Assembly (NCBI RefSeq): GCF_011492945.1
Contig: NZ_CP045119.1
Location: 3,782,001 to 3,846,000, forward strand
DNA from: Rubrobacter tropicus
GTDB lineage: Bacteria > Actinomycetota > Rubrobacteria > Rubrobacterales > Rubrobacteraceae
Reading direction: 5' to 3'
Length of the DNA: 64,000 bases
Of the stretch, positions 6,268-61,615 are shown in pieces. Within the stretch, counting starts at the first letter, position 1. Each line of letters opens with the position of its first letter. A program made the translations under genes and the position numbers. The notes under the pieces were generated by a model. That model did not search any database. It had not been told where the DNA came from and saw nothing but the letters and a program-made list of their open reading frames with translations.

Positions 6268-7398
6268 CTACGCCACCGTTTCCAGCGCGATCACGTACAC
6301 GCACCCTTCCTCGCCCGCCACGGAGGAATGCTTCGTGCCCTCGGGCAAAAGGAGGCGGTCTCCCGACGTGCAGGCCGCCTCCTCGTCGTCGTAGCGGAAC
6401 GTGATCGAGCCGTCGACGATCAAGAGCGTTTCGTCGGTCGGGTGCGTGTGAGTCTCGTGCTCGCGCCCCGGGGTGTCGCGCTGAACCTCCACCGAACCCG
6501 TCTCTGGCAGCAGCTCCATCACCGCCATCTCAAGCTCGACGCCCCCGCCGCGGACTATCTCGGGCCTTCTGCCCGCCTCTTGCGTCATCGCGTCCTCCCT
6601 TCGGTCGCCTTTTTCCCGGGCCCGTGTCCGTTCTCCCGCCAGGCCGCCGCGCGTCACCGCACGGTCCGTCGCGGCGTGGAAGGGACAGCGCCCGGTCACG
6701 GGCGTGTTGTCGTCGGGCAGGAAGTACTGTTTCCACTCGTGCGATGACGGGTCCCCGTAGCTTCCCATGTCCGGGTGCGCCTCCATGCCCTCCCACGCCT
6801 CCATCCTGGCTCGGATGATCTCGCGCGCCCGCGTCCCGGCAGGCGTCCCGCCCTCTATTCCGTCGAAGACCCTCCTGGGCTGGAACAAGAGGACCAGCGA
6901 ATCGCCCATATTCCTCGAATCCCGGAGACGATACGCCGGCGCCGAGGCGAACACGAACATCGGCTCCCCGGCGAAACAGAACTCCCACTTGGGATCTACA
7001 GGGTCGTACGGACGATCCTCCGGCCATGGACTCTCGTCCAGCCCGTGCAGGAAACGTAGGACGTACCAGAACCGCTCCTCGTAAAAAGATAGCGGCCTCC
7101 GCGCCCGTTCGGGCTCGAAGAACAGCGCCAGGGCGTGCCTGACCTGCGGGTTGGCCTTCGAGAGGGCGAGGAACTCCCGCAGCAGCGCGGGTACGTGTCC
7201 GACGTCGTCTCCTTCGACGTACCCGTAGCGCAGCTCCCCCCGCTTCTCCGCGGAGGTCCCGAAGTAGCACGGGTACTCGGGATCGAGGAGACGATCTCGG
7301 AAACGGCCGTACTCGCGCACGAGCCAGCGCGGCACCATCCCATCAGCCCCGGACACGTCCTGCCCTGTAAGCAGCAACCTTTGCTCGACTTTGACCAA
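6268..7398 (-). CDS. YqcI/YcgG-family protein fused to a C-terminal cupin
   Basis: Residues about 20-240 match the YqcI/YcgG family: DPEYPCYFGTSAEKRGELRY, the aromatic LFFEPERARRPLSFYEERFW stretch and a final CPFH. Members studied in natural-product pathways are, as I recall, haem-dependent amino-acid N-oxygenases. Most are uncharacterised. Residues about 271-376 form a cupin (HETHTHPTDETLLIVDGSI, then LLPEGTKHSS). The join is a charged linker. Inside it, AAGGGAGG precedes an in-frame ATG at 6588, so a separate 106-aa cupin may also be made. The divergent GntR gene is the likely regulator. The fusion could be an operon whose stop codon was lost. Confidence 0.75.
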   Translation of the reverse strand: MVKVEQRLLLTGQDVSGADGMVPRWLVREYGRFRDRLLDPEYPCYFGTSAEKRGELRYGYVEGDDVGHVPALLREFLALSKANPQVRHALALFFEPERARRPLSFYEERFWYVLRFLHGLDESPWPEDRPYDPVDPKWEFCFAGEPMFVFASAPAYRLRDSRNMGDSLVLLFQPRRVFDGIEGGTPAGTRAREIIRARMEAWEGMEAHPDMGSYGDPSSHEWKQYFLPDDNTPVTGRCPFHAATDRAVTRGGLAGERTRAREKGDRREDAMTQEAGRRPEIVRGGGVELEMAVMELLPETGSVEVQRDTPGREHETHTHPTDETLLIVDGSITFRYDDEEAACTSGDRLLLPEGTKHSSVAGEEGCVYVIALETVA

Positions 7399-9075: not shown

Positions 9076-9789
9076 TTAACCCTGCGGGGACCACTGCTCG
9101 CGCCACCGCTCCATCTGCCCTGTTTCGCGCCTCTGGGCGTCCACGATGTCCCGGGCGATCCCTTTTGTCTGCTGGTTGTCGCTCTCCTTCAGGGCGACCT
9201 TCGCCATCGCTATGGCCGAGCGATAGTGCGGCATCATGGCGTCGATAAACGCCCTGTCGAGCGGCCTCTTGTCCGCGAGCTCCTGCGGGTCGGTCATCCC
9301 CATCGCGTCCATCTCGCCCTGGGCCATGGCGGAAGGGATCTCAGAGGTGCCGAACTCTTCGCGCTTTATGCCGCGAAGCTCCTCTATCTCGGCCTCCTGG
9401 GCGCCGACTATGTCCTCGGCGAGGATCCTTATCTCCTCGTGCTCGGCGTTCTCCAGTGCCACCTCGGCCATCTCCACGGCGCCCAAGATCGTCACCGGGT
9501 TGGGGGGCGAGCCCGGACCGTAGCGCCATTTCAGGAATGCCGCGTCCTTCTCCACCACACACGGAACCTCGGCGGACACCTCCTCGGAGAGCCCGTCGAA
9601 GAGCTTGCCGGAGCCGCCCCCGAAACCGAACAAAGGCTCGACGGCCGGCCCCCGCCCGAAGGCGGCCCCGAGGGCCCGATCCACGGCCCTGAGTCCCAAG
9701 GTCGGCACTTTCATCGCGGGCCTGAGCGGGGCGGGGACCCTCGTGGGCCGAGAGAGGTCGAGCGGCGCCCAATTCTTGAGAGGACCCAC
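9076..9789 (-). CDS. Chimeric DUF305 protein with a foreign N-terminus
   Basis: Residues about 130-237 are a DUF305 ferritin-like helical domain: AFIDAMMPHYRSAIAMAKVA with the conserved M-M-x-H, then IARDIVDAQRRETGQMERWR. Residues 1-125 are unlike DUF305 proteins. They lack a signal peptide, and the FLKWRYGPGSP stretch resembles the middle of GNAT-type acetyltransferases. The first DUF305 half begins abruptly at AVEMAEVALENAEHEEIRIL. I read it as a deletion fusion of an acetyltransferase 5' part to a DUF305 3' part near 9470. DUF305 proteins are usually exported and found in metal-resistance loci; without export this one may be non-functional. Confidence 0.65.
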   Translation of the reverse strand: MGPLKNWAPLDLSRPTRVPAPLRPAMKVPTLGLRAVDRALGAAFGRGPAVEPLFGFGGGSGKLFDGLSEEVSAEVPCVVEKDAAFLKWRYGPGSPPNPVTILGAVEMAEVALENAEHEEIRILAEDIVGAQEAEIEELRGIKREEFGTSEIPSAMAQGEMDAMGMTDPQELADKRPLDRAFIDAMMPHYRSAIAMAKVALKESDNQQTKGIARDIVDAQRRETGQMERWREQWSPQG

Positions 9790-13296: not shown

Positions 13297-14010
13297 CTAG
13301 CCCTGGCTTTCTGCGCGCTCGATCTCTTCCAGGTACCCTTGCATCAGCTTTATCTCGGCCGACTGTTCGTCGATGATCTTCTTGGCCAGCCCCTGAATCT
13401 CTGGGTGCTCGGCCTTGTCGAGTGCCTGCTCGGACATCTCGATCGCCTGCTCGTGGTGCGGGATCATCATCCTGAGGAACATCTCGTCGGCCACGTCCGC
13501 GCCCATTGACTCCTGCATGGAGCCGCCTGCCATACCTTCCATCATTCCAGAGTTCATCGTACCGCCGGTCGTGCCGTAGGCAGGTCCCGCGTCGGGGTAC
13601 CAGCGCTGACGCCACTCCCGCATCTGCCCGATCTGGTCGGACTGGCTCTTCTGGATGTCGTCCGCGAGCTTGCGGAGTTCCGGACGGTCGGAGTCCGAGA
13701 TCATGTGCTCCGAAGACACGATCGCCATCTGGTGATGCATGATCATCTCGTCTATGAACCGCAGGTCGAAGGGTTGGCTCTTATCGAGATTCTCCGGTCT
13801 GGGGCCGCTGAACGTCCCCGGACCGTTCATCATGTGACCCATCATAGAGTCGGAGCCGTTCACCATCCCCGAACCGTATCCTGTAGACTGTCCGCCCATC
13901 ATGCTCTGGCCGCCCCAGGCGGAGGGTCTACCGTCTGCGTAAACCGTTCCGATCCCCGCCAGCAAGATGGCCAATACCGCCAGGACGGGTACCAGGTACT
14001 TCGCCGTCAT
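13297..14010 (-). CDS. Exported DUF305 protein, Met/His-rich
   Basis: The start is set at ATG 14010, one base after a TAG that would end the ancestral SHOCT frame, the same junction seen at 17018 and 32382. A GTG at 14022 is the alternative. The 237-aa product has an N-terminal signal helix (LVPVLAVLAILLAGIGTVYA), a Met/Gly linker and two DUF305 halves. These are FIDEMIMHHQMAIVSSEHMI with IQKSQSDQIGQMREWRQRWY, and MFLRMMIPHHEQAIEMSEQA. The MHH and PHH pairs in a four-helix fold are the probable metal ligands. It likely acts outside the membrane in copper or metal handling. Confidence 0.85.
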   Translation of the reverse strand: MTAKYLVPVLAVLAILLAGIGTVYADGRPSAWGGQSMMGGQSTGYGSGMVNGSDSMMGHMMNGPGTFSGPRPENLDKSQPFDLRFIDEMIMHHQMAIVSSEHMISDSDRPELRKLADDIQKSQSDQIGQMREWRQRWYPDAGPAYGTTGGTMNSGMMEGMAGGSMQESMGADVADEMFLRMMIPHHEQAIEMSEQALDKAEHPEIQGLAKKIIDEQSAEIKLMQGYLEEIERAESQG

Positions 14011-14068
14011 CCTAGACACCACCTCTCAGATAGTTCTCTTCGCCATTGAGCGCTCTCATCGAACGTCC

Positions 14069-22826: not shown

Positions 22827-23240
22827 TCATCGGGCCACCGCCGCGAGGACGAGGGCGATGGCCCACAGGCCTGCGAGGGCCAGGAGCGGTCGCTTGAAGT
22901 CCGAGTCGATCACGACGTTCACCAGCGCCATCCAGCCGATCGAGGTCGCCCATACCAGGGCGAGAACGACCAGCGCGCCGCCTTCGCCCGAACGCAGACT
23001 GGTGTTTGCCAGGTACGCGACGAGCACCCCGGTCGAGACGATGTAGCCGCCCATCACCCAGAACACGCGCTTGAGCCATCGAGAGAGGTCGGGCGCGGCC
23101 TTTAGGAGGGCAGCCTGAGTAGTGCCCATGAAACGGGCATCCTCGGGTAGCAGGGCCGGGCGGGCGATGATGAAGTACCCGCCGATCCCGACGAGGGCGA
23201 GGCCGGAGAGGGTCAGCAGCCAGGCGGCTACCGAGGTCAC
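22827..23240 (-). CDS. Four-helix membrane protein of unknown function
   Basis: A 137-aa integral membrane protein with four hydrophobic segments ([75 protein letters not shown]). No Cys, His or Met cluster is seen, unlike its neighbours. Its start overlaps the end of the copper ATPase gene by 4 nt, so it is tightly coupled to it. It may be an accessory or assembly subunit. I do not recognise a named family. Confidence 0.65.
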
Positions 23241-26032
23241 TCAGTCACCCCCTTCGCTTCCTTCGGCTTCCAGAGCTTGAGCCGGTTGGCGTTGGTGATC
23301 ACGGTGATGGAACTGAGGCTCATCGCCAACGCCGCCAGCAGCGGCGAGAGCAGTATCCCCGCGAACGGGTAGAGGAGCCCGAGGGCCACCGGGATGCCGA
23401 GCCCGTTGTAGACGAAGGCCCCGAACAGGTTCTGTCGGACGTTGCGCATGGTGGACTTGGAGATCTCGACCGCCGTCACCACGCCCCGCAGGCTGCCGCT
23501 GATGAGCGTTACGTCCGCCGCCTCTATGGCCACGTCGGTGCCGGTCCCGATGGCGAAACCGACGTCGGCCTGGGCGAGCGCGGGGGCGTCGTTTATTCCG
23601 TCGCCGACCATCCCGACCTTCTTGCCTTCCAGTTGAAGCTTCTGAACGTTGTGGGCCTTGTCCTGCGGCAGCACCTCGGCGAGCACCCGATCGATACCGA
23701 CCTGCCGCCCGATCGCCTCGGCCGTGCGCTGGTTGTCGCCGGTGATCATGGCGACTTCGAGCCCCAGGCGCTTGAACGCAGCGACGGCCGACACGGAGTC
23801 CTCCTTGATGGTGTCCGCCACGGCGATGACGCCCGCCGCGGCGCCGCCGATGGCGACGTACATCGGGGTCTTGCCGTCGTCCGCGAGCCGGCGGGCCTCA
23901 GCTTCGAGCCTTCCGAGGGCGATGCCCCGGTCGTCCATCAACTTCGCGTTGCCGAGCATGACGCCCCTACCTTCTACGCCGGCCTCAACGCCGTGGCCGG
24001 GGATGGCGGAGAAGCCCGCCACCTGGGGCAAGTCGAGCTCCCCTGCGCCCTCGACTATCGCGCCGGCTAGCGGGTGCTCGGAGTTGCGTTCGATGGCGGC
24101 GGCGAGCCTGAGGACCTCGTCCTCGTCGAAGCCGTTCTCGGTTACGACGTTTGTCAGCTCGGGTTTCCCCTTTGTTATGGTGCCGGTCTTGTCCAGGACG
24201 ACGGTCTGGAGCTTCGAGGCGGTCTGGAGGGCGTCTCCGGAGCGGATCAGGATGCCGTTCTGGGCGCCCAGGCCCACGCCTGTAGTCAGGCTGACCGGTG
24301 TCGCCATACCCAGGGCGCACGGGCAGGCGATGATGAGGGTGGTGACCGCCACGATGAGGGCGTAGGCGAGGGCCGGAGCTGGGCCGAAGACGAACCAGAC
24401 GACGAAGCCCGCGATGGCCAGGATCATGACCGCCGGGGTGAAGTAGCTAGAGACTGTGTCCACGACGCGCTGGATCGGGACCTTCGACCCCTGGGCGTCC
24501 TGCACCATGCGGATGATGTTAGAGAGCGCCGTGTCCTTGCCGACCTTGGTGGCCGTAAAGCGGAAGCTCCCGGTCGCGTTGATCGTCGCCCCGATGACCT
24601 CGTCGCCCTCGTGCTTCTCCACGGGTATGGATTCGCCGGTGATCATGGACTCGTCCACAGACGAGGTACCCTCCAGCACGACGCCGTCCACCGGCACCTT
24701 CTCTCCGGGACGGACGACCACGGCGTCGCCAACGAGCACCTCTTCGACGGGTATGTCCATCTCCCGTCCATCCCGGACCACGCGTGCGGTCTTGGCCTGC
24801 AACCCGATGAGCTTCTTGATGGCCTCCGACGTACGTCCCCGGGCCTTGACCTCGAGCGCCAGGCCTAGAACCACCAGCGCCGTCACCACCACGGTCACGT
24901 CGTAGTAGACGTCGGTCATCGCCTCGTCCGGGAAGATCCGGGGGAAGAGCAACGCGATGGTGGAGTAGATCCAGGCGACGCCGGTGCCGGTGGCGATGAG
25001 GGTGTGCATGTTGGCCTGCCGGCGCTTGATCCCCTGCCACATACCCACGAAGAACTGGCTACCGCTGTAGACGAGCACGGCCAGGCTGGCTATTCCCATC
25101 AGTCCCCAAACGACGCGCAGCTCGGCGCTTCCTCGGGGCAGGACGTCCCGCAGAATTGGGATGATCCACGGGTAGGACAGGATCATGGTCGGCCCGCCGA
25201 CCGCGGCCCCGAACCACCACTTGCGCATCAGGCGCCGGTACTCCCGCTCCTGCTCGGACACCTCTTCCTCTTCGGCCCGTTCGCCGGGCTCTCTAGCCTC
25301 CTGTGCGATGTACGGGCCGGCGCTCTCCACCGCCCGCTCCAGTCCCTTAAGGTCCACTACACCCGGCAGGTAGTCCACCTTCACCTCCTCGGTGGCGGCG
25401 TTCATGGTGGCATCCAGCACGCCCGGTGCGGCCTTGAGGGCTTTCTCTATCTGGTCTATGCACGCCGAGCAATACAGGCCCGTGACCTTCAGACGCAACG
25501 ACGCGCCGCCGGTGTCGAAGCCGGCGTCCCGTACCGCCCGCACCAGCCGCCCGACGCCGACCCGCTCCGGGTCGTATTCGACGCGGGCACGCTCCCCGCG
25601 GACGTTGACCCGGGCTTCGCCCACGCCGGGCACGGCTTCCAGCGCCCGCTCCAGAGCTGGGCCACCCGGACGGCTTCGCTCCAGGCCCGTGAGCGGCAGC
25701 TCGATCCACACCCGACCGCCGGTCTTCGGCGGGACTCCCGTCGTCGCCGACGGCGTGGCCATGGGTGTCCCGCGTGCGTCGTGTTCGTAGCCTCCGGCGT
25801 GGGTGTGTCCCGTGTGGGCGTGGCCCCCGGCGCGCATGTGCTCTCTCATGTACGTGGCCTCCATGTACCTCTGCGGCTCCGCGTCGAACCGCCTCGCGCA
25901 TCCTTCCGAGCAGAAGAAGAGATCCGTCCCGTCGTGGCGGCGCGAGGCTTTGGCCTTTCTCGCGTCTATCAGCATCCCGCACACCGGGTCCCAGCCCGGG
26001 CTCGGAGACCGGTTCACGTCCGGATTCTCCAT
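23237..26032 (-). CDS. copA: Copper-exporting P1B-type ATPase with YHS and two HMA domains
   Basis: The 931-aa pump has, in order: a YHS domain at 15-56 (DPVCGM with C18; C41 and C45), a His-rich linker ([14 protein letters not shown]), a degenerate HMA at about 108-175 with no CxxC, and a second HMA with C188-S-A-C191. The P-type core has TGES, CPC at 570-572 (P1B-1, Cu(I)/Ag(I)), DKTGT, the HP motif in SEHPLAGA, and [10 protein letters not shown]. It hydrolyses ATP to move Cu(I) out of the cytoplasm. A TCAG array lies 40 bp upstream. It heads an operon running to the CsoR-like gene, in which several neighbouring genes overlap. Confidence 0.93.
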
Positions 26033-39186: not shown

Positions 39187-40503
39187 CTACCACCAGCTGT
39201 CAGACATCGCGTCGAGCAACAAGGCCGCCGACCAGGAGAAGAGATCGGAGCCGTGGCCCACCCCGGTTCTGGGGTTGAAGTATTCGTAGAAACCGTTGTC
39301 CCGGACGAGGTTCACGATGGACTCGCGCAGGCCCCGGGCGTGTTTCTCGTACCCGTATCGCTCGAGCCCGCGCATGAGGAGCCAGTCTATGTTGATCCAC
39401 ACCGGTCCTCGCCAGTACCTGGACGGCGAGAAGCCGAAGCCCAGGGGGTCGTAGGAAGGCACTGCGATCATACCCTCGCCCCCCAAATCGAATCCTGTCG
39501 TCTTCAGACGCTCGACCATCCGCCGGGCACACTGCTCCTCCGGTATGCCCGCGAAGAGAGGAAGGAAGCCCGCCGCGGCGTAGACGCGGATGGGCTGTCC
39601 GGTCGCGAGGTCGAAGTCCAGGTAGGTTCCGTGCTCCTCGTCCCAGAGCTTCCGGTTCACCGCCCCTGCGGTCTTGCCGGCCCGTTCCTCGTTTGGCGAT
39701 GGGTCTTCGCCGATAAGTTGGGCGATCTGCGCGAGATCCCTCTCTCCCTGACACAACAGCGAGTTGAAGAGCACGTCCTGCACCAGGAAGGGACAGTCCT
39801 CCCTTATGCGGGCTTCGTCGTAGTTCAGCCTGGAGAAAAGCTGAACCAGGTAGGCGAAGCGGTCGTAGGCCGCGCTTTCGGGGCGATCCGCCGGGGAGAC
39901 CACGTGCGTGTCGACGCGCCGGTAGGCTGGGATCTCGTGGGAGCGGAGTTGCATCCGCAGCATGATCGCATCCCACAGCGGAGAGTTGTCCATGCCCGAC
40001 TCCCAGGGATGACGGATGTAGACGAGCCCTTCGTTCTCCGGGTCCCGCTCCCTGTAGAGATAGTCGTGCCAGGCCACGAGACGTGGGAACGCCTCCTCAA
40101 GAAACGCCCGAGCGCCCGGGCGGTCTACGCCGTGCCGGTATACGTGGAGGGTCGCGGTGGCGTGGATGGGCGGTTGGACGACGCCTGAGGTCTTGTAGAC
40201 GCACACCGCGCTCTCGCTGCACTCGGCGTGCCAGAAGTCTATTCCGGGGAAGTACTCGCCAAAGTGCGGGTCAAAGACTATCTGCGGCAACAGCCCGTTG
40301 GTCCACTGGTTATCGAAGAGGTGCCGGAGCTCCTGTATGGCCCGCTTCTGGTCGTAGCGGGCGTAGCCAAAGGCGATGAACGCCGAGTCCCAGGACCACT
40401 GGTGCGGGTAGAGCCTGGGGCCGGGGCGCGTGTACTCTCCGGTCCAATTGGAGTCCAGGACCATCTTGGCCTGATGGATGAGCGTGTCGAGATTCTGTGG
40501 CAC
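39187..40503 (-). CDS. mgh: Mannosylglycerate hydrolase-like GH63 enzyme
   Basis: The 438-aa protein is an (alpha/alpha)6 barrel glycosidase: GPRLYPHQWSWDSAFIAFGY with the substrate-contact WDS, YIRHPWESGMDNSPLWD with the probable general acid Asp, and FGFSPSRYWRGPVWINIDWL near the end. This pattern is that of MgH enzymes described from Thermus thermophilus and Rubrobacter radiotolerans, which split mannosylglycerate into mannose and glycerate. The solute protects against heat, salt and drying; breakdown recycles it. Length matches the family. The EamA gene begins 4 nt upstream in the same operon. Glucosylglycerate could also be a substrate. Confidence 0.85.
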   Translation of the reverse strand: MPQNLDTLIHQAKMVLDSNWTGEYTRPGPRLYPHQWSWDSAFIAFGYARYDQKRAIQELRHLFDNQWTNGLLPQIVFDPHFGEYFPGIDFWHAECSESAVCVYKTSGVVQPPIHATATLHVYRHGVDRPGARAFLEEAFPRLVAWHDYLYRERDPENEGLVYIRHPWESGMDNSPLWDAIMLRMQLRSHEIPAYRRVDTHVVSPADRPESAAYDRFAYLVQLFSRLNYDEARIREDCPFLVQDVLFNSLLCQGERDLAQIAQLIGEDPSPNEERAGKTAGAVNRKLWDEEHGTYLDFDLATGQPIRVYAAAGFLPLFAGIPEEQCARRMVERLKTTGFDLGGEGMIAVPSYDPLGFGFSPSRYWRGPVWINIDWLLMRGLERYGYEKHARGLRESIVNLVRDNGFYEYFNPRTGVGHGSDLFSWSAALLLDAMSDSWW

Positions 40504-41987: not shown

Positions 41988-44384
41988 CTAGGCGTGGTCA
42001 CTATGCCCGGGGGTCGCCACGGACGTGGGGTGCGGGGTCTCGGGGCTGTCGCCGGGCTCGGAGCGCTCCACGCCGGGTAGACGGGCCCGCTTCAGGAGCA
42101 AGGCGTTGACCGCCACCAGTAGCGAGCTTCCGGCCATCGAGAGCGCCGCTATCTCCGGCCGCAGTAGCAGCCCGATGCTCGGATAGAAAACCCCCGCCGC
42201 GATCGGGAAAGCCACGGTGTTGTAGCCCACCGCCCAGAAGAGGTTCTGCTTCATCTTGCGTACCGTCGCCCGGCTGAGGGCGATGGCGCCGATCACGTCC
42301 GACGGGTCGCTCTTCATCAACACCACGTCCGCCGCCTCCATCGCGACGTCGGTGCCCGCCCCAATAGCGACCCCAACGTCAGCCTGGGCGAGCGCCGGGG
42401 CGTCGTTTATCCCGTCCCCGACCATCGCCACCAGCTTGCCTTCGTCCTGGAGCTCTCTCACCTTGTCCGCCTTCTGGCCGGGCAGCACCTCCGCGAAGAC
42501 CGTCCCGACGCCAAGCTCTCCGGCGATCCGTTCGGCGGTGGCGCGGTTGTCGCCCGTCAGCATCGCCACCTGGACCCCCAGGTCGCCGAGCTCCTCGACC
42601 GCCTTCTGAGAGGTGGGCCGGATCGCGTCGGCGATCGCGATGAAGCCGGCGGCTTCGCCGTCCGCGGCGGCGTAGACCACCGTCCGCCCGGCGCCCTCCA
42701 GGCTCGCCGCCCGCTCGCCGAGACCGTCCAGCTCGACGCCGCTCTCGCGCATCAGCTTGCGGTTGCCGACCAGCAACGTCCGGCCGTCCACCGCCGCCCG
42801 CAACCCGTGCCCGGGGATAGCCTCGAAGTCTGTCGGCTCGGAGAGCGTCAGGTGTTGCTCCCTGGCCAGGTCCACCACCGCCTGCGCCAGCGGGTGTTCG
42901 CTCGACTGCTCTGCGGAGGCCACGAGCTTCAGCAACTCTTCTTCCAAGATGGGGTTGCCGGAGGCCGCGACCTCGACCACCTTTGGCTCTCCCACGGTAA
43001 GGGTACCGGTCTTGTCGAAGATGATCGCCTCCACCTTGCTGGCCTGCTCCAGGGCCGTGGCGTTCTTGTACAAGATTCCGTTCATCGCCCCCAGGCCCGT
43101 GCCGACCATGATGGCGGTGGGGGTCGCGAGGCCCAGGGCGTCCGGGCAGGCGATGATGACCACCGTGATCGCCAGGGTCAGGGCGAAGATCAGACCGGCG
43201 CCGGCAACCCAGTACCAGCCGGCGAAGGTCGCCAGGCCGAAGAGTACCGCCGCGGCCACCAGCCACTGCGAGGCCCTGTCGGCCAGGCGCTGCGCCGGCG
43301 CCTTGGAGTTCTGGGCGAGCTGCACCAGCTTCACGATCTGGGCCAGCGCCGTGTCCGCGCCGACCTTGGTTGCGCGGAATCGGAAGGTGCCCGTCTTGTT
43401 GATGGTCGCCCCGATCACCCCGTCACCCGGTTTCTTCTCCACGGGTACGCTCTCGCCGGTTATCATGGACTCGTCCACGCTGGAATCGCCCTCGCTGACG
43501 ACGCCGTCGACCGGGATCTTGTCACCGGGACGTATCAGGACGGTATCGTCCATCACCACCTCGGAGGTCGGCACCTCGATCGGCTCACCGTCCCGGATTA
43601 CCGTGGCCTTGGGCGGCGCGAGGTCCAGGAGCGCCCGGATCGCGTCCGACGCCCCGGCCCTCGCCCTCATCTCCATCCAGTGCCCGAACAGGACGAATGC
43701 CAGCAGCACCACCGACGCCTCGTAGAACACCTCGCTCTCGAACAGGAACGTCGCACCGACGCTGAACAGGTACCCCGCCCCGACCGAGAGCGCCACCAGC
43801 ACCGACATGTCCAGGACGCGGTTCTTGAGCGACCGGTAGGCCCCGACGAAGAACATCTTCCCGCCCCAGAGCACCGCGGGCGTGGCGAGCACGAACAGCA
43901 GGATGTCGTCCGGTATCCCGAAAGGGATCGGCAGCCGGATCCCGAACACCTCCGTCGCCAGCGGCGAGTAGAGCGTGACGAGGATTCCCAGGACGAAGGC
44001 GACCCAGAAACGGTTGCGCATGTCGCGCACCATCTCATCCATGCCCATCCCGGCGCCGTGGCCCATCTCGCGCGCCATCTGCTCCGTCCGACCGGAGGGA
44101 GCCTCTTCTTCCAGGACCGGGGGCCCGAGTTCGGTGGCTACTTCCTCTGGACCGACGAGGTTGCGAGGAATCACCTCACCCTCGCAATGGCAGCCGAACT
44201 CCTCGATCAGACGGCGCACTTCGGCCTCGGAGACCTCCGCCTCATCGTACTCCACTGTCACCGTCTCGCTCATGTAGCCGGCTTCGGCGCGGCGGATGCC
44301 CCGGTGGCGGAGCAGGAAGCTCTCCAGCGCCGGTCCCGAGCTGCCCCGCAGCAACCCGCCGGCTTCGAGCACTACCTCTTTCAC
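41988..44384 (-). CDS. P1B-type heavy-metal ATPase with CPD metal motif
   Basis: The 798-aa pump has an N-terminal HMA-like domain with GCHCEGE instead of a plain CxxC, and a Met/His linker ([16 protein letters not shown]). The P-type core has [30 protein letters not shown] and [10 protein letters not shown]. The transmembrane metal motif is CPD (residues 413-415, [13 protein letters not shown]), not the CPC of the copper pump at 23237 or the CPH of CopB. This alters one metal ligand to carboxylate, so the ion cannot be read from known classes. The C-terminus has His (TPGHSDHA). It follows a hydrolase gene by 18 bp. Confidence 0.9.
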
Positions 44385-51662: not shown

Positions 51663-54128
51663 TCACGGCGTCCAGACCCAGTCGCGTATCTCCGGCGGGT
51701 CCTCCAGGTGCTCGCGCGAGTAGGCCGTAACTCTGGAGATCAGAGACTCAAGCTCGGAGGTCAGAGTCGAGGCGCACGAGTGCGCCCGGCACCCAGGCCC
51801 GACGCATTTGAGGGCGTCCATCGCAAGGTGGTAACGGCTCATCTTGTTGAGAACGACCATATCGAACGGCGTCGTGGTGGTGCCCTGCTCGTTGAAGCCG
51901 CGAACGTGGAAGCGGTCCACGTCGACGTGGCCGTGCACGATCTCGTGTATCGCCCTCTGGTAGCCGTGGAACGCGAAGACTACCTGCTTGTCGGGCGTAA
52001 ACAGCTCTACGAAGCGTGACTCACTCATGCCGTGCGGGTGGAACTCGCGCGGGAAGAGCGTCATGAGGTCCACGACGTTGACGACCCGCACCTTGAGTTC
52101 GGGGGCGTGCTCGCGCAGCCAGTGGGCCGCCGCGACGGTCTCCAAAGTGGGGATGTCCCCGGCGCATCCCAGCACGACGTCGGGCTCCTCGCCATCGGGC
52201 ACGTTGGACGCCCACTCCCAGATCGAGACACCACGCGTGGCGTGTTCGATGGCCGCGTCCATGTCGAGCCACTGAAGCTGGGGTTGCTTGTCTATGACGA
52301 TCAGGTTCACGTAGTCGCGGCTGCGAAGGCAGTGATCCGCGACCGAGAGCAGGGTGTTGGCGTCTGGGGGCAGGTAGATGCGCGCGACGGTGCCCCTCTT
52401 GGAGAGCATCACGTCTATGAGGCCAGGCCCCTGGTGGGAGAAGCCGTTGTGGTCGTTGCGCCAGGCCGTGGAGGTCAGGAGGATGTTGAGCGAGGAGATC
52501 GGCTCCCGCCAGGGCAGGTGGACCGCCTCCTCCAGCCACTTGGTGTGCTGGACCACCATCGAGGCGGGGATCATCGCGAAGGCCTCATAGGTGGCGAACA
52601 GGCCGTGTCGTCCGGTCAGCAGGTAGCCTTCCAGCCACCCCTCGCACAGGTGCTCGCTCAAGACCTCCAAGACCCTCCCGTCCGGCGAAACGTGGTCGTC
52701 TATCCGGATCGTCGGCCCAACAAAGCAGCGGTCCTCGACCTCGAAGACGGCGCCGAGGCGGTTGGAGTTGGTCTCGTCCGGGCAGAAGAGCCGGAAGTTC
52801 CGCCGCGCGGCGTTGAGCGTGAAGGTGTCGCGCAAGAGATCCCCAAGCTTGCGTGTGGACTCCTGGCGCATCGTGGCTGGCGCCGGTACCCCGACGGCGT
52901 AGTCGCGGAAGTCGGGAACTTCGAGATCCTTTAGCACCCGACCGCCGTTGGCGTGAGGGTTCGCGCCCATGCGCCTATCCCCCTCCGGGGCGAGCGCGAC
53001 AAGCTCGGGAATCAGACGTCCCTCTTCGTCGAACAGTTCCTCGGGGTGGTAGGAGCGCATCCATTCTTCGAGCCGCGCGAGCTGGTCCGGGTCTGACCTC
53101 ACCCTGGAGAGCGGCACCTGGTGGGAGCGGAAGGTACCGGTGGCCGGCAAGCCGCTCACCTCGCCTGGGCCGGTCCAGCCCTTGGGGGTGCGGAGCACGA
53201 TGGCCGGCCATCGCGGGCGTTCCGAGATGCCATTCTCGCGTGCCTGACGCTGGATAGCCCGGATCTCCTCGTAGCACCGGTCGAGAGTGGCAGCGAAGGC
53301 TTGGTGCACGCGAGCCGGGTCGTCCCCCTCGACGAAGTGGACCCAGTAGCCGTGTCCCCTGAGGATGGCGCGGACCTCGTCGTTCGATGCGCGGCCCAGC
53401 ACGGTGGGGCCCGAGATCTTGTAGCCGTTCAGGTGCAGTATCGGTAACACCGCCCCATCACGCGCCGGGTTGAGGAAGCTCGTGGACTTCCAGGAACCCT
53501 CCAGAGGGGCGGTCTCGGCCTCGCCGTCTCCGACCACCGCGGCGACGAGGAGGTCCGGGTTGTCGAAGGCGGCGCCGAAGGCATGGGAGAGCACGTAGCC
53601 CAGCTCGCCGCCCTCGTGGATCGAGCCGGGAGTGGGCACGCTGACGTGGCTCGGCACGCCCCCGGGCGTGGAGAACTGGCGAAAAAGCCTTTGCATCCCG
53701 GCCGCGTCCCCGGAGACCTCCGGGTAAACCTCGGAGTATGTTCCTTCGAGGTAGACGTTGGCCAGGACGGCCGGGCCCCCGTGGCCTGGGCCGGCCAGGT
53801 AGATGGCGTCCACGTCGCGCTCCCGTATGAGGCGGTTCAGATGCACGTAGACGAGGCTCAGGCCTGGGGAGGTGCCCCAGTGGCCGAGCAGGCGCGGCTT
53901 GATGTGCGAAGGGTCCAGGGGGTCGCGCAGGAGTGGGTTGTCCTTCAGGTAGATCTGGCCGACCGTCAGGTAGTTGGCGGCCAGCCAGTAGCGGTCTATT
54001 TTTTCCAACAGCTCCGGCGAGAGTGGCCCTTCCACCGGCGTTTCCCGTAAACGGGGCGGTGGGCCGCCGTCGCTCTCGACCGCGCTGGAGATATTGGGGT
54101 CGAAACGGTACGCGGGGCTCTCCTTCAT
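51663..54128 (-). CDS. xfp: Phosphoketolase (xylulose-5-P/fructose-6-P)
   Basis: The 821-aa ThDP enzyme has the full-length layout: [40 protein letters not shown], the ThDP motif [18 protein letters not shown], and [20 protein letters not shown]. The C-terminal domain has [15 protein letters not shown]. It cleaves xylulose-5-phosphate or fructose-6-phosphate with phosphate to give acetyl phosphate and glyceraldehyde-3- or erythrose-4-phosphate. Acetate kinase starts upstream with a 1-nt gap, so acetyl phosphate is turned into ATP and acetate. Expression is probably from array F. Confidence 0.95.
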
Positions 54129-54129
54129 A

Positions 54130-55311
54130 CTACGCTCCTTCCTGTGACGTGAACCTTGCGAGTTTGTAGGTGTGGCGGGCGATCGTCAGGTCCTCGTCGG
54201 CGGGGATCACGTGAACGGCCACCGGTTCGCCGTCGCGGGAGACGACGGGCGCGTTCTGCGCGTTGCGCTCCGGGTCTAGCCGGATACCGAGGAACTCCAG
54301 CCCCTCGCAGATGCGCCACCGCACGGCCGACGCGTGCTCCCCGATGCCGCCGGTGAAGACGAGCGTGTCCAGCCCGCCGAGCGCGGCTGCTAAAGAGCCC
54401 AGGGACTTCTTCGCCGCGTAGCAGAAGAGGGCGACGGCCTCGGCGGCGCGCGGGTCTTCCGCCACGCGCTCCAGCAGGTCGCGCATGTCCGCGCTGGTCC
54501 CCGAGACCCCGAGGAGCCCCGACTCCCGGTTGACGAGTTCGCGCAGGGCGCCGGGGTCCATCGACCGTAGCAGGTGGAGGATCACACCGGGGTCGAGGTC
54601 GCCGGGCCTGGTGCCCATCACGAGCCCGCCCGAGGGGGTGAAACCCATCGTCGTGTCCACGCCCACGCCTTCTCTTACCGCGGCCATGCTCGCCCCGTTC
54701 CCGAGGTGTGCTATGACGACGCGCCCGGCCGCCGCCTCCGGGTCCAGGCGGCGCAGCTCGCCCACCACGTACTCGTAGGAGAGACCGTGGAACCCGTAGC
54801 GGACAACGCCTTCGTCCGCGAAGCGGCGCGGGAGGGCGAAGAGCCGGGCGACGTGGGGCATGGTCCGGTGAAAGGCGGTGTCGAAGGCGGCCACCTGCGG
54901 TATCTCCGGCCCGAGGGCTTCACGAACGGCCCGAATCGCGGCGAGGGCGGGTCTGTTGTGCAGGGGCGCGAGCTTTCCCAGGGCTTCGATCCCTTTTAGC
55001 GCCGCGGGATCCAGGAGCGCCGGCCCGGAGAAGCGCGCCCCGCCGTGGACGATCCGGTGGCCGACGGCCCCGACGCCGTCCAACAGGCCGCAGCGGTCGA
55101 GCTGTCGCATCACCAGGAGCGCAGCCCAGATGTGATCGCCCGCCGAGGCGGGCCGTACCGTCTTCTCGCCCCTCTCGCTGTAGATCTCGACGTTTCCGCC
55201 GGAACCCCCGATCCTGTCCACGGCCCCGCGGACCAGAAACCGCTCGCCCTCCGACTCGAAGAGCCCGAACTTCAACGTCGAGCTTCCGCAGTTGATAGTG
55301 AGGACCCTCAT
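54130..55311 (-). CDS. ackA: Acetate kinase
   Basis: The 393-aa enzyme has [56 protein letters not shown] and [20 protein letters not shown], all the family motifs. It makes ATP from acetyl phosphate and ADP. It overlaps the TreT-YHS end by 4 nt and is followed by phosphoketolase after 1 nt, a phosphoketolase-acetate bypass under one promoter. A phosphotransacetylase gene is not in the window. Confidence 0.95.
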
Positions 55312-56741
55312 GACCCCGCGACGGCCCGAAGAAAGTATTCCGGTGAAGCCTCGAACTGACCCCGGCAGGACTCAGAGCAAAAGTCGTAGCGGTGCCCGCG
55401 GTACTCGTACCCGAACGCCGGTGTCGGTCCGAGCAGCATCCCGCAGACCGGGTCCCTATCCTCCCTGCCGAGACCCGCCTGGGCGACCGCCACGTCCGGT
55501 TGCCGCGCCCCGAGTAAGGCCCCATAGAGCCTGAGCTCGTCGGCGATCAGGCGTGTAAGCAGGAACCGCCCGCGCACGAGCTCCCGACCCATCCCGGCAA
55601 GCTCCGCTCCTTCCTCTGGATCTTTGAGCAGGCGCAGGGTCTTCGCGGCGCACTCCTCGACGGAGTCAACGAGGAAACCGCCGGCCCCGCCCTGCATCTG
55701 CAGCGGGATGCCCCCGGCCCGGCCGGCCACCACGGGCGTCTCCTTCCACAGCGCCTCGGAGACGACCAGGCCGAAGCCCTCGCGGATCGACTTCTGTATC
55801 ACCACGTCGGAGAGGCGTTGGAAGGCGTTGACCTCCACGTTGCCCACCCCGGTGAGGTTGGTAAAGAGGTGGATGTGGAGATCGGACTTTGAGGCGGCCT
55901 GGATCCGGCGGTAGATCTCCCACCCCTCAGGATCGTCGAGCGCCATCGAGCCGACGAGGGCCAGTTGCAGGTCGGGCACCTCCTCCCGGACGAGCCGGTA
56001 CGCTTCCATGACGCCAAGGGGGTCCTTCCAGGGGTCGAAGCGCGAGACCTGGGTGACGAGGGGTCTGGCCGTGTCAACCCCGATCCAGGCCAGCACGTTC
56101 TGCGCGGTCCTACGGTCGAGCCTCATGTTCTTGGGGCTCTCCGGGTCTATGGCCGGAGGTACGATCTCCACCCTCCCCACCGGCACGTCGGGCGGCGCGA
56201 AGCTCCCCAGGGTGAAAACGGCCGCGTCGTAGCCCTCGAGGTACTGCCGCAAGAAGCCCCAGACCTGCGGGTTGGGCTCGGCGGTGTCTATGTGACAGCG
56301 CCAGACCCAGCGCGAGCTGCCCTTGCCCCGCAACTTCAGGAGCGCGAGAGGCTGCGGGTCGTGGACGACGATCAGGTCGTACTCCTCCTCCAGGAGGGAG
56401 GCGTTGCGGGCTGAGTAGGTCAGGTAAGTCTCCCGCTCGGCCGGTGTCAACTCGCGTTCGGCCCCCTGCAAACCGTTGTGCATGGCCTTCGTCACGGAGA
56501 AGAAGGGTTCGTCTCCGGTGATTAATCTCCAATCCGCCACGATCCCGAGATCCCTCAAAAGCGGTATCTCGGAGCGCAGGATCTCGGCCACCCCGCCGCC
56601 GTAGGGCGTCGCGTTGAGGTGGAGCACCCGCGCCCCGCGCAGGGGCTCCGCCAGCTCCCTCAGTTGCGCCACGGCCTCAGCCCCTGCGCTCGATTCGTAG
56701 AGGTTTACGTACTGCCTCCCAACGTCCACGGTCTCGAGCAC
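55308..56741 (-). CDS. treT: TreT-type trehalose glycosyltransferring synthase fused to a YHS domain
   Basis: Residues 1-410 are a GT4 glycosyltransferase: [59 protein letters not shown] and [20 protein letters not shown]. That pattern fits TreT, which makes trehalose from ADP- or UDP-glucose and glucose. Residues 430-477 are a YHS domain (DPVCGM with C433, C455, C459) like that of the copper ATPase at 23237. The fused pair is unusual; YHS modules bind metals. The linker has no good internal start. The gene heads the xfp operon behind array F. Confidence 0.88.
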
Positions 56742-59874: not shown

Positions 59875-60235
59875 CTTGTCCTCACTCTCGCCTGGATCTG
59901 CTTCGTCTCCGAAAGTCCCTGCCGGGAGACTGTTTCTCCTGCTTCCACCTCCTCTGCGATTGGCCGTAGGGTGAATAAACGATCTCTCGTCTGCAATTCT
60001 CGTACCACACGGCCCTGAACTCCCGCTGATGCGAAGCTGAATGCTTCCTGAAAACCGCCTGGCGACAACAAACGATGTGGAGCGAAATCCTGGGCGGATC
60101 CGAACCTCCAGGCAGGTTGACCGTACCGTCACCCGCAGGTTCTCTTGCGAACGCGCCGCATTTAGCACCGCGACGATCGTCACAATCCCAGGCACGTGGC
60201 ATCGTAACGAACCGCGGGCGATAAACTTGGCGGCG
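59875..60235. other. Divergent intergenic region with array I
   Basis: This 361-bp stretch holds array I (59999-60052) and the leader of the His/Met-rich gene. Beyond it to 60235 I see no gene; an in-frame upstream extension of DedA-PAP2 to 60041 overlaps the array and is rejected. Confidence 0.6.
59999..60052 (-). promoter_or_regulatory. TCAG array I (His/Met-rich peptide promoter)
   Basis: CTGAA, CTGAT, CTGAA, CTGAA start at 60015, 60026, 60037 and 60048 on plus. Ten bases lead to TACGAG on minus (59999-60004), preceded by TG. Confidence 0.78.
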
Positions 60236-61615
60236 ATGGACAGGGTTCTCTCCCTCATCGAGCACTACGGCTACCTGGTCGTCTTCTTCGGCGTGATGCT
60301 GGAGAGCACGGGCGTGCCACTGCCCGGCGAAACCATTCTCCTGGCCTCCGGCCTGCTGGCGCAGCAGGGGCACCTCGACGTGGGCGACGCGATCCTGTTC
60401 GGCGTCCTTGGGGCCGTGGTCGGCGACCAGATCGGCTACTGGGTGGGCAGGGAGAAGGGCAGACCGTTCGTGCTGCGGTGGGGCAGGTACGTGCGGATCA
60501 CCCCCGAGCGCCTCGACCGTGCGGAGGCGTTCTTCTCCAGCCACGGTGGCAAGGCCGTCTTCTTGGCCCGCTTCTTCGCCGGCCTCCGAGTGTTCGGCGC
60601 GCTGGTGGCCGGCATAAGCAGGATGCACTGGCGGACCTTCGCCTTCTGGAACGCCCTGGGTGGGATCGTTTGGGCTTCGGCGGCGGTCCTCGTCGGCTAC
60701 CTCCTGGGCGGCAGCCTCGATGTGGTCGAGCGGTGGCTGGGGAGAGCGACGCTCCTGCTGGCCCTTGTCGTCGCCTCGGTGGCGGGCTTCTATCTTGCCT
60801 ACCGTTGGGTTGCGGCCCACCGGGCGCTACTCGTGTCATACGGCGAGGTCGTGCTATCCTGGCCTCGGGTGGCCAGACTGCGGGTCCGCTACGACTCCCA
60901 GCTCCGCTGGTTGCTGCGTCGCCTGACGCCGGGACAGTACCTCGGGTTGCACCTCACGCTCGGCCTGTCCTTCGCCGGCGGGTGCCTGTGGCTGTTCGGC
61001 GGGCTGGCCGAAGACCTGCTGACGAAAGATCCTCTCGTCCGCTACGACCATGCGATAGCCGGCTACCTGCACTCCCTGGCGAACCCGCCACTCACGACCT
61101 TCTTCCTCGGGCTCACCGCCCTGGGCTCCATCGAGACGATGGCGCTCTTTGGGGCGCTTGTCGCGGCGTACTTGGCCTGGAGGCGGCGTTGGCTGTTCTT
61201 TGGGATCTGGGTTGCCGCGGTTGGGGGCAGCGCGGTGCTCGACCAGCTCCTCAAGTCTTTATTCGCCAGGCCCCGCCCCGTCTTCGAACACCCGTTGCTG
61301 CTGGAGACTTCGTACTCTTTCCCCAGCGGGCACGCGATGGTGTCCTTCGTCGTCTACGGGATGCTTACCTACTTCGCGGTTCTGGCCCTAAAAACCTGGC
61401 GTGCGCGGGTAGCCGTCGTGTTCGGGGCGGGGCTCCTCGTGCTTCTGATCGGCTTCTCCAGGATGTACCTGGGCGTCCACTACTTCAGCGACGTGGCCGC
61501 CGGCTACGCCGCCGGTGGCGTATGGCTAAGCGCGCTCATCACGGGCGCGGAGACCGTCCGACGGGGCAACGGAAGATCCGAGCCATCCCGAACCGGTCTT
61601 GCGAAAGAGCACTGA
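60236..61615 (+). CDS. DedA-PAP2 fusion membrane protein
   Basis: ATG 60236 is the natural DedA start (DRVLSLIEHYGYLVVFFGVM). The 459-aa protein has a DedA/SNARE-associated domain at about 1-200 (ESTGVPLPGETILLASGLLA, FFAGLRVFGALVAGISRMHW). A PAP2 phosphatase domain covers about 240-450 with KSLFARPRP, YSFPSGHAM and SRMYLGVHYFSDVAAG as the three catalytic motifs. DedA proteins move polyprenyl phosphates or lipids across the membrane, and PAP2 enzymes dephosphorylate lipid phosphates, so undecaprenyl-phosphate recycling is a sensible combined role. No clear Shine-Dalgarno is visible. Confidence 0.88.
   Translation: MDRVLSLIEHYGYLVVFFGVMLESTGVPLPGETILLASGLLAQQGHLDVGDAILFGVLGAVVGDQIGYWVGREKGRPFVLRWGRYVRITPERLDRAEAFFSSHGGKAVFLARFFAGLRVFGALVAGISRMHWRTFAFWNALGGIVWASAAVLVGYLLGGSLDVVERWLGRATLLLALVVASVAGFYLAYRWVAAHRALLVSYGEVVLSWPRVARLRVRYDSQLRWLLRRLTPGQYLGLHLTLGLSFAGGCLWLFGGLAEDLLTKDPLVRYDHAIAGYLHSLANPPLTTFFLGLTALGSIETMALFGALVAAYLAWRRRWLFFGIWVAAVGGSAVLDQLLKSLFARPRPVFEHPLLLETSYSFPSGHAMVSFVVYGMLTYFAVLALKTWRARVAVVFGAGLLVLLIGFSRMYLGVHYFSDVAAGYAAGGVWLSALITGAETVRRGNGRSEPSRTGLAKEH

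What the first reader, a model, noticed from the sequence alone, without database searches (positions are those of the whole stretch)
55308..56741. Trehalose synthase TreT fused to a metal-binding YHS domain
One continuous frame joins a GT4 TreT-like enzyme to a C-terminal YHS domain (DPVCGM, then two further Cys) like that at the N-terminus of the copper ATPase. YHS domains usually accompany metal pumps. Metal control of trehalose synthesis, or metal-driven oligomerisation, would be new to me.
Basis: partly seen in the sequence, partly recalled or inferred. Interest (0 to 1): 0.66.

Follow-up and report, generated by a model that had tools for sequence, protein, structure and literature searches.

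The report
Trehalose enzyme carrying a metal-binding tail
A bacterial enzyme that makes or breaks down the stress sugar trehalose carries a small extra domain of the type that binds copper-like metals; the same fusion occurs in many bacteria, often beside metal-pump genes, so it may be a metal-sensing version of the enzyme, although metal control has not been tested.

Summary
Window 55308-56741 (-) is one intact 477-residue frame. It joins a complete TreT-type GT4 trehalose synthase (residues 1-410; 44% identical to P. horikoshii TreT) through a flexible linker of about 18 residues to a YHS domain (430-472; Pfam 40 bits, cut-off 30.3). It is no artefact: I found the fusion in 15 distinct proteins from Rubrobacteraceae, Streptomyces (including two plasmid types), Catenulispora, Amycolatopsis, other actinobacteria and one Planctomycetota MAG. 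The Asp and three Cys thought to bind metal are invariant in all 15, while the linker drifts. Unfused close relatives are interspersed in the tree, so the domain was gained or lost several times. Distribution is patchy (1 of 298 Streptomycetaceae genomes). Many fused copies lie near heavy-metal ATPases that often carry YHS themselves; this genome has only two YHS domains, both in this window. Best reading: a mobile trehalose synthase with a cytosolic metal (probably copper) sensor tail. The precedent is the M. phlei adenylyl cyclase, whose C-terminal YHS makes it copper-activated. Metal binding and control are inferred. I found no paper describing this fusion. In this window the enzyme is co-operonic with acetate kinase and phosphoketolase.

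The parts
55308..56741 (-). TreT-YHS fusion gene, 477 aa, GTG start
56196..56621 (-). TreT_GT1 N-terminal domain PF21269 (residues 41-182)
   Evidence: E 1.7e-53
55599..56075 (-). GT4 C-terminal Rossmann domain PF00534 (residues 223-381)
   Evidence: E 3.1e-19
55779..55781 (-). E321, equivalent of the residue mutated in the P. horikoshii TreT E326A structures; invariant in fused and unfused relatives
55458..55511 (-). linker, residues 411-428, variable; residues 417-426 predicted disordered (pLDDT < 50)
55326..55454 (-). YHS domain PF04945 (residues 430-472)
55443..55445 (-). C433 of DPVCGM, proposed metal ligand (with D430 at 55452-55454); invariant in 15 of 15 fused proteins
   Evidence: ligand assignment by analogy to PMC4626032
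55365..55379 (-). C455-SES-C459, the other two proposed ligands; spacing C-x21-C-x3-C
54130..55311 (-). acetate kinase gene ackA; its ATG overlaps the treT-YHS stop by 4 nt
51663..54128 (-). phosphoketolase gene xfp, 1 nt after ackA, same strand
25856..25993 (-). the only other YHS domain of this genome, N-terminal in the P1B copper ATPase 23237-26032
41988..44384 (-). second P1B-type heavy-metal ATPase, about 11 kb from treT-YHS; a homologue directly follows treT-YHS-ackA-xfp in relative G014 (L124)

Best explanation
A dedicated, horizontally mobile TreT paralogue whose C-terminal YHS domain is a cytosolic transition-metal sensor, most likely for copper. Shown: an intact TreT catalytic domain plus a conserved YHS domain with the full Asp+3Cys set, joined by a flexible linker; recurrence of the fusion across lineages; frequent proximity to heavy-metal ATPases. 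Inferred: metal binding by D430/C433/C455/C459 changes the position of the YHS relative to the C-terminal GT4 lobe, through which the known TreT dimerises, and so switches the reversible reaction NDP-glucose + glucose <-> trehalose + NDP. This would raise or redirect trehalose metabolism when cytosolic metal rises. In this genome the flux would connect to phosphoketolase and acetate kinase in the same operon. Activation is the likelier sign, by analogy to the M. phlei enzyme, but the sign is undetermined.
For: Intact fusion with Pfam domains. Catalytic half close to solved TreT by sequence and fold. 15 distinct fused proteins with all four proposed ligands invariant and the linker variable. 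Purifying selection on YHS. Linker pLDDT < 50 with a folded YHS. The YHS model matches the YHS part of toluene/phenol hydroxylases and ribosomal L24e. Fused genes lie near P1B ATPases, some with their own C-terminal YHS, and near ftsH, galT-like, merA or htpX genes. Both YHS domains of this genome lie in this window. The genome also has a separate unfused TreT. Precedent: the C-terminal YHS of M. phlei adenylyl cyclase makes it a 1-10 uM Cu2+ on-switch (PMC4626032). TreT dimerises through its C-terminal domain (PMC11046441).
Against: No metal binding or metal effect was measured. Unfused close relatives (72% identical, same family) work without it, and the fusion comes and goes on the tree, so it is not essential to catalysis. 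In this window the operon partners are ackA and xfp, not metal genes; the nearest P1B ATPase is about 11 kb away. Some fused loci show no metal ATPase within 6 kb (L125 has Ca-type ATPases, L128 none seen).
Confidence: 0.5

Rival explanations
1. The YHS is a constitutive structural zinc-finger-like element: it binds one metal permanently and stabilises the enzyme or its dimer, with no sensing.
For: The fold resembles L24e, a TRASH protein with a bound metal in the ribosome; ligands are invariant.
Against: Predicted flexible linker and no conserved contact partner; many close unfused relatives need no such element; association with metal-stress genes would be unexplained.
Confidence: 0.2
2. The YHS is a docking or metal-handover module: it brings TreT to the YHS-bearing P1B ATPase or makes it a metal sponge, without changing catalysis.
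For: In Streptomyces plasmid islands both the ATPase and TreT carry C-terminal YHS; in L065 the ATPase with C-terminal YHS lies immediately upstream of an unfused TreT; L038 has an ABC ATPase with YHS, a free YHS and TreT-YHS side by side.
Against: Several fused loci have no ATPase nearby; a soluble sugar enzyme is an odd chaperone; no interaction data.
Confidence: 0.13
3. The three Cys act as a thiol redox or electrophile switch rather than a metal site.
For: Islands also carry thioredoxin-like, universal stress and protease genes.
Against: The Asp is invariant along with the Cys; in the M. phlei precedent, EDTA reversal argued for binding over oxidation.
Confidence: 0.1
4. A neutral passenger domain picked up by recombination in metal islands.
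For: Gained or lost at least four or five times.
Against: All ligands kept at 57-81% overall identity and dN/dS well below 1 in YHS.
Confidence: 0.05

Closest known systems
TreT, trehalose glycosyltransferring synthase (GT4, EC 2.4.1.245), P. horikoshii 2x6q, T. uzoniensis 6zj4
   Same: Whole catalytic core, about 44% identity over about 400 residues; Foldseek TM 0.93 (target-normalised); catalytic-site Glu conserved
   Different: Known structures end near residue 410; none has a C-terminal YHS
M. phlei class IIIc adenylyl cyclase with C-terminal YHS (PMC4626032)
   Same: C-terminal YHS on a cytosolic dimeric enzyme, short linker, same Asp+3Cys set
   Different: Catalytic domain unrelated; metal response there measured, here not
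YHS/TRASH domains of P1B copper ATPases (such as window 23237-26032)
   Same: Same Pfam family and ligand set, 42% identity between the two YHS of this genome
   Different: Attached to a membrane pump, N- or C-terminally, rather than to a sugar enzyme
Unfused TreT-AckA-Xfp clusters (Nitrospira L094)
   Same: TreT with acetate kinase and phosphoketolase downstream
   Different: No YHS, and about 1.8 kb between treT and ackA

Membership tests
TreT trehalose synthase (GT4) | TreT_GT1 N-terminal domain plus GT4 C-terminal domain over their cut-offs | tested here: met
   180.6 bits (cut-off 27) and 69.6 bits (cut-off 26.4)
TreT trehalose synthase (GT4) | fold and catalytic-site Glu of solved TreT | tested here: met
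   2x6q TMt 0.93, 44% identity; E321 aligns with E326
TreT trehalose synthase (GT4) | transfer of glucose from NDP-glucose to glucose to give trehalose | not testable with these tools
   needs enzyme assay
NCBIfam NF041139 TreT_Thcocales equivalog | score at or above the curated cut-off of 775 bits | tested here: not met
   397 bits; the model is specific to Thermococcales, so the protein is not filed under it
YHS domain (PF04945) | score over the Pfam gathering cut-off | tested here: met
   40.0 against 30.3 bits
YHS domain (PF04945) | conserved Asp and three Cys implicated in metal binding | tested here: met
   D430, C433, C455, C459 invariant in 15 fused proteins
YHS/TRASH domain | treble-clef-like fold of YHS in hydroxylases and of L24e | tested here: inconclusive
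   the best rows are the YHS part of toluene/o-xylene monooxygenase (Foldseek prob 1.00, E 0.08; VIA Z 6.5), then L24e; consistent, but scores for 55 residues are modest
YHS-regulated enzyme (like M. phlei AC) | C-terminal YHS joined by a short flexible linker to a catalytic domain | tested here: met
YHS-regulated enzyme (like M. phlei AC) | activity switched by copper via the YHS | not testable with these tools
   needs assay

The most novel reading that the evidence does not exclude
Trehalose metabolism is directly gated by a transition metal through an allosteric YHS domain, as part of a mobile metal/stress-tolerance module shared by actinobacterial chromosomes and plasmids. That would be a metabolic enzyme acting as its own metal sensor.
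Probability: 0.4. Interest if true: 0.75.

Novelty: new variant of a known kind. Interest (0 to 1): 0.56.

Why it matters
If the YHS controls TreT, it would be, as far as I found, the first case of a compatible-solute enzyme regulated directly by a transition metal. It would extend the YHS sensor role, known biochemically from one adenylyl cyclase, to primary carbon metabolism. It would also give a concrete function to a domain whose role in copper ATPases and hydroxylases is unproven, in a small soluble enzyme that is easy to assay.

Tried and rejected
Frameshift or assembly error: rejected, the fusion recurs in 14 other distinct proteins. YHS as a separate gene wrongly joined: rejected; a free YHS exists beside one fused copy (L038) but TreT keeps its own. 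Single origin of the fusion: holding all fused rows as one clade is rejected (AU p 1e-60). That test alone cannot tell one gain with several losses from several gains. Same-genus relatives: none of the 8 has a fused copy; in 7 the best match is an unfused TreT of 50-52% identity, and G007 has only a weak GT match. Phage origin: only one weak partial GT hit in phages. Direct descent of the TreT YHS from the ATPase YHS of the same genome: not resolved, since 45-residue domains give broadly similar identities within and between classes. Promoter and terminator scan: nothing above chance. tRNA-bounded island: no tRNA in the window, and GC is even at 65-69%, so no island border could be drawn by composition. 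Literature: searches found no paper on TreT with YHS. Automatic neighbour counts contained two false P1B hits among fused loci (L125, Ca-type ATPases; L132, a cupredoxin domain), corrected by Pfam. The counts are also not phylogenetically independent.

Full report
What is there. Pfam gives TreT_GT1 (residues 41-182), a GT4 C-terminal domain (223-381) and YHS (430-472, 40.0 bits against a cut-off of 30.3). The catalytic half is 44% identical to P. horikoshii TreT, with the Glu mutated in the E326A structures kept as E321. The stop of the fusion overlaps the ATG of an acetate kinase by 4 nt, and a phosphoketolase follows 1 nt after that, so treT-YHS, ackA and xfp look like one operon.

Not an artefact. 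I found 15 distinct fused proteins. They come from the window's genome, two further genomes of the same family (G014, G027), Rubrobacter taiwanensis, actinobacteria G078/Soudan_30, G198 and G290, several Streptomyces, a Catenulispora MAG, Amycolatopsis dendrobii, a Planctomycetota MAG and Streptomyces plasmids pI (S. mirabilis P16B-1) and pFRL3 (FR1). R. taiwanensis appears to be genome G018, marked 'same family', so the window is most likely from the Rubrobacteraceae (inference from matching contig length). In the alignment of all 15, D430, C433, C455 and C459 are invariant, as are R429, V432, G434, F454, S456 and F463, while the linker varies in length and sequence. Pairwise dN/dS in the YHS is about 0.2-0.4.

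Evolution. All fused copies fall in one supported TreT subclade of 28 rows (99/96), which also holds 13 unfused ones. The label needs at least four to five changes, and holding all fused rows as one clade is rejected. The domain is therefore gained and lost, yet kept intact where present. Distribution is patchy: 1 of 298 Streptomycetaceae, 1 of 18 in the order of G078, and none of 8 same-genus relatives. Together with two plasmid carriers this points to horizontal spread. The window's genome also has a separate unfused TreT, 51% identical, and seven of its eight congeners have an unfused TreT of 50-52% identity to the query. The fused gene is thus an extra, specialised copy.

Context. In Streptomyces the fused treT lies in a recurrent block with P1B ATPases that have an N-terminal cupredoxin and a C-terminal YHS, plus ftsH, an MFS transporter, a galT-like gene, ybhN/LPG-synthase-like genes, htpX, universal stress proteins and, on pFRL3, merA, arsR and csoR. 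Plasmid pI is known to confer nickel (and cobalt) tolerance; its treT-YHS is not discussed in that paper. In G198 a cupredoxin gene is adjacent and a close homologue of the window's YHS-copper ATPase lies 7 kb away. In L038 an ABC ATPase ending in YHS, a free 56-residue YHS gene and treT-YHS lie in a row. In L065 an ATPase ending in YHS stands directly before an unfused treT. In the window the two YHS domains, in the copper ATPase and in TreT, are the only ones in the genome, 30 kb apart, with a second P1B ATPase 11 kb from treT. In relative L124 that ATPase's homologue directly follows treT-YHS-ackA-xfp. Counted automatically within 6 kb, galT-like genes occur by 8 of 14 fused and 3 of 50 unfused loci. 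P1B ATPases were counted at 7 of 14 against 5 of 50, and 5 of 14 after I removed two false hits; the unfused side was not hand-checked and the loci are not independent. Some fused loci (L125, L128) show no heavy-metal ATPase nearby.

Structure. An AlphaFold2 model from 32 relatives has mean pLDDT 89, a disordered linker at 417-426 and a folded YHS. The YHS modelled alone (pLDDT 85) matches best the YHS region of toluene/o-xylene monooxygenase and then ribosomal protein L24e, the TRASH protein with a bound metal. Scores are modest, as expected for 55 residues.

How it most likely works. The precedent is precise: M. phlei adenylyl cyclase has a C-terminal YHS on an 8-residue linker. With Mg2+ it is inactive until 1-10 uM Cu2+ is added, the isolated catalytic domain is not stimulated by low-micromolar Cu2+, the other transition metals tested do not substitute, and one Asp and three Cys are the proposed ligands (PMC4626032). 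TreT dimerises through its C-terminal domain (PMC11046441), so a tail there could act on lobe closure or the dimer. I therefore favour an allosteric metal sensor on a reversible trehalose enzyme (confidence 0.5). Metal identity, sign of the effect and whether trehalose is made or used are inferred. In the window, coupling to phosphoketolase and acetate kinase would let trehalose-derived sugar phosphates yield acetyl-phosphate and ATP; unfused treT genes of Nitrospira also stand near ackA and xfp, so that link is independent of the YHS.

Novelty. Both halves are known families; the combination, its conservation and its metal-island setting are, as far as the literature searches reach, undescribed. 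The library holds open-licence papers only, so absence there is weak evidence. I rate it a new variant of a known kind.

Noticed in passing
window 51663-55311; L094, L092, L098, L109, L047: ackA and xfp cluster with treT also in Nitrospira and a Solirubrobacter-type MAG that lack the YHS, suggesting a trehalose-phosphoketolase link independent of metal.
   Followed up: partly
L038 1-3629 (= L140): ABC transporter ATPase with C-terminal YHS, a free 56-aa YHS gene and TreT-YHS in a row; three YHS domains within 3 kb.
   Followed up: partly
L134 6935-9727, L135 21156-23960, L065 3166-6213: P1B metal ATPases with an N-terminal cupredoxin domain and a C-terminal YHS domain.
   Followed up: partly
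window genome G000: Nine places match the copper ATPase at E <= 1e-80, against none to three in same-genus relatives; three lie within about 55 kb around the window and three on the second contig.
   Followed up: no
L134 and L139 versus window 20000-59500: The Streptomyces plasmid island and the window share cytochrome b, oleate hydratase, AarF/UbiB, heavy-metal ATPase and TreT-YHS genes, hinting at a shared stress module that also holds FtsH and HtpX in Streptomyces.
   Followed up: partly
window 6268-7398: YqcI/YcgG family protein fused to a C-terminal cupin domain.
   Followed up: no
window 60041-61615: VTT (DedA-type) domain fused to a PAP2 phosphatase domain.
   Followed up: no
window 39187-40503: MGH1-like glycoside hydrolase with a weaker trehalase match, a possible sugar hydrolase of the same region.
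   Followed up: no
window 9076-9789 and 13297-14022: Two DUF305 proteins near a cation efflux gene and a two-component system.
   Followed up: no
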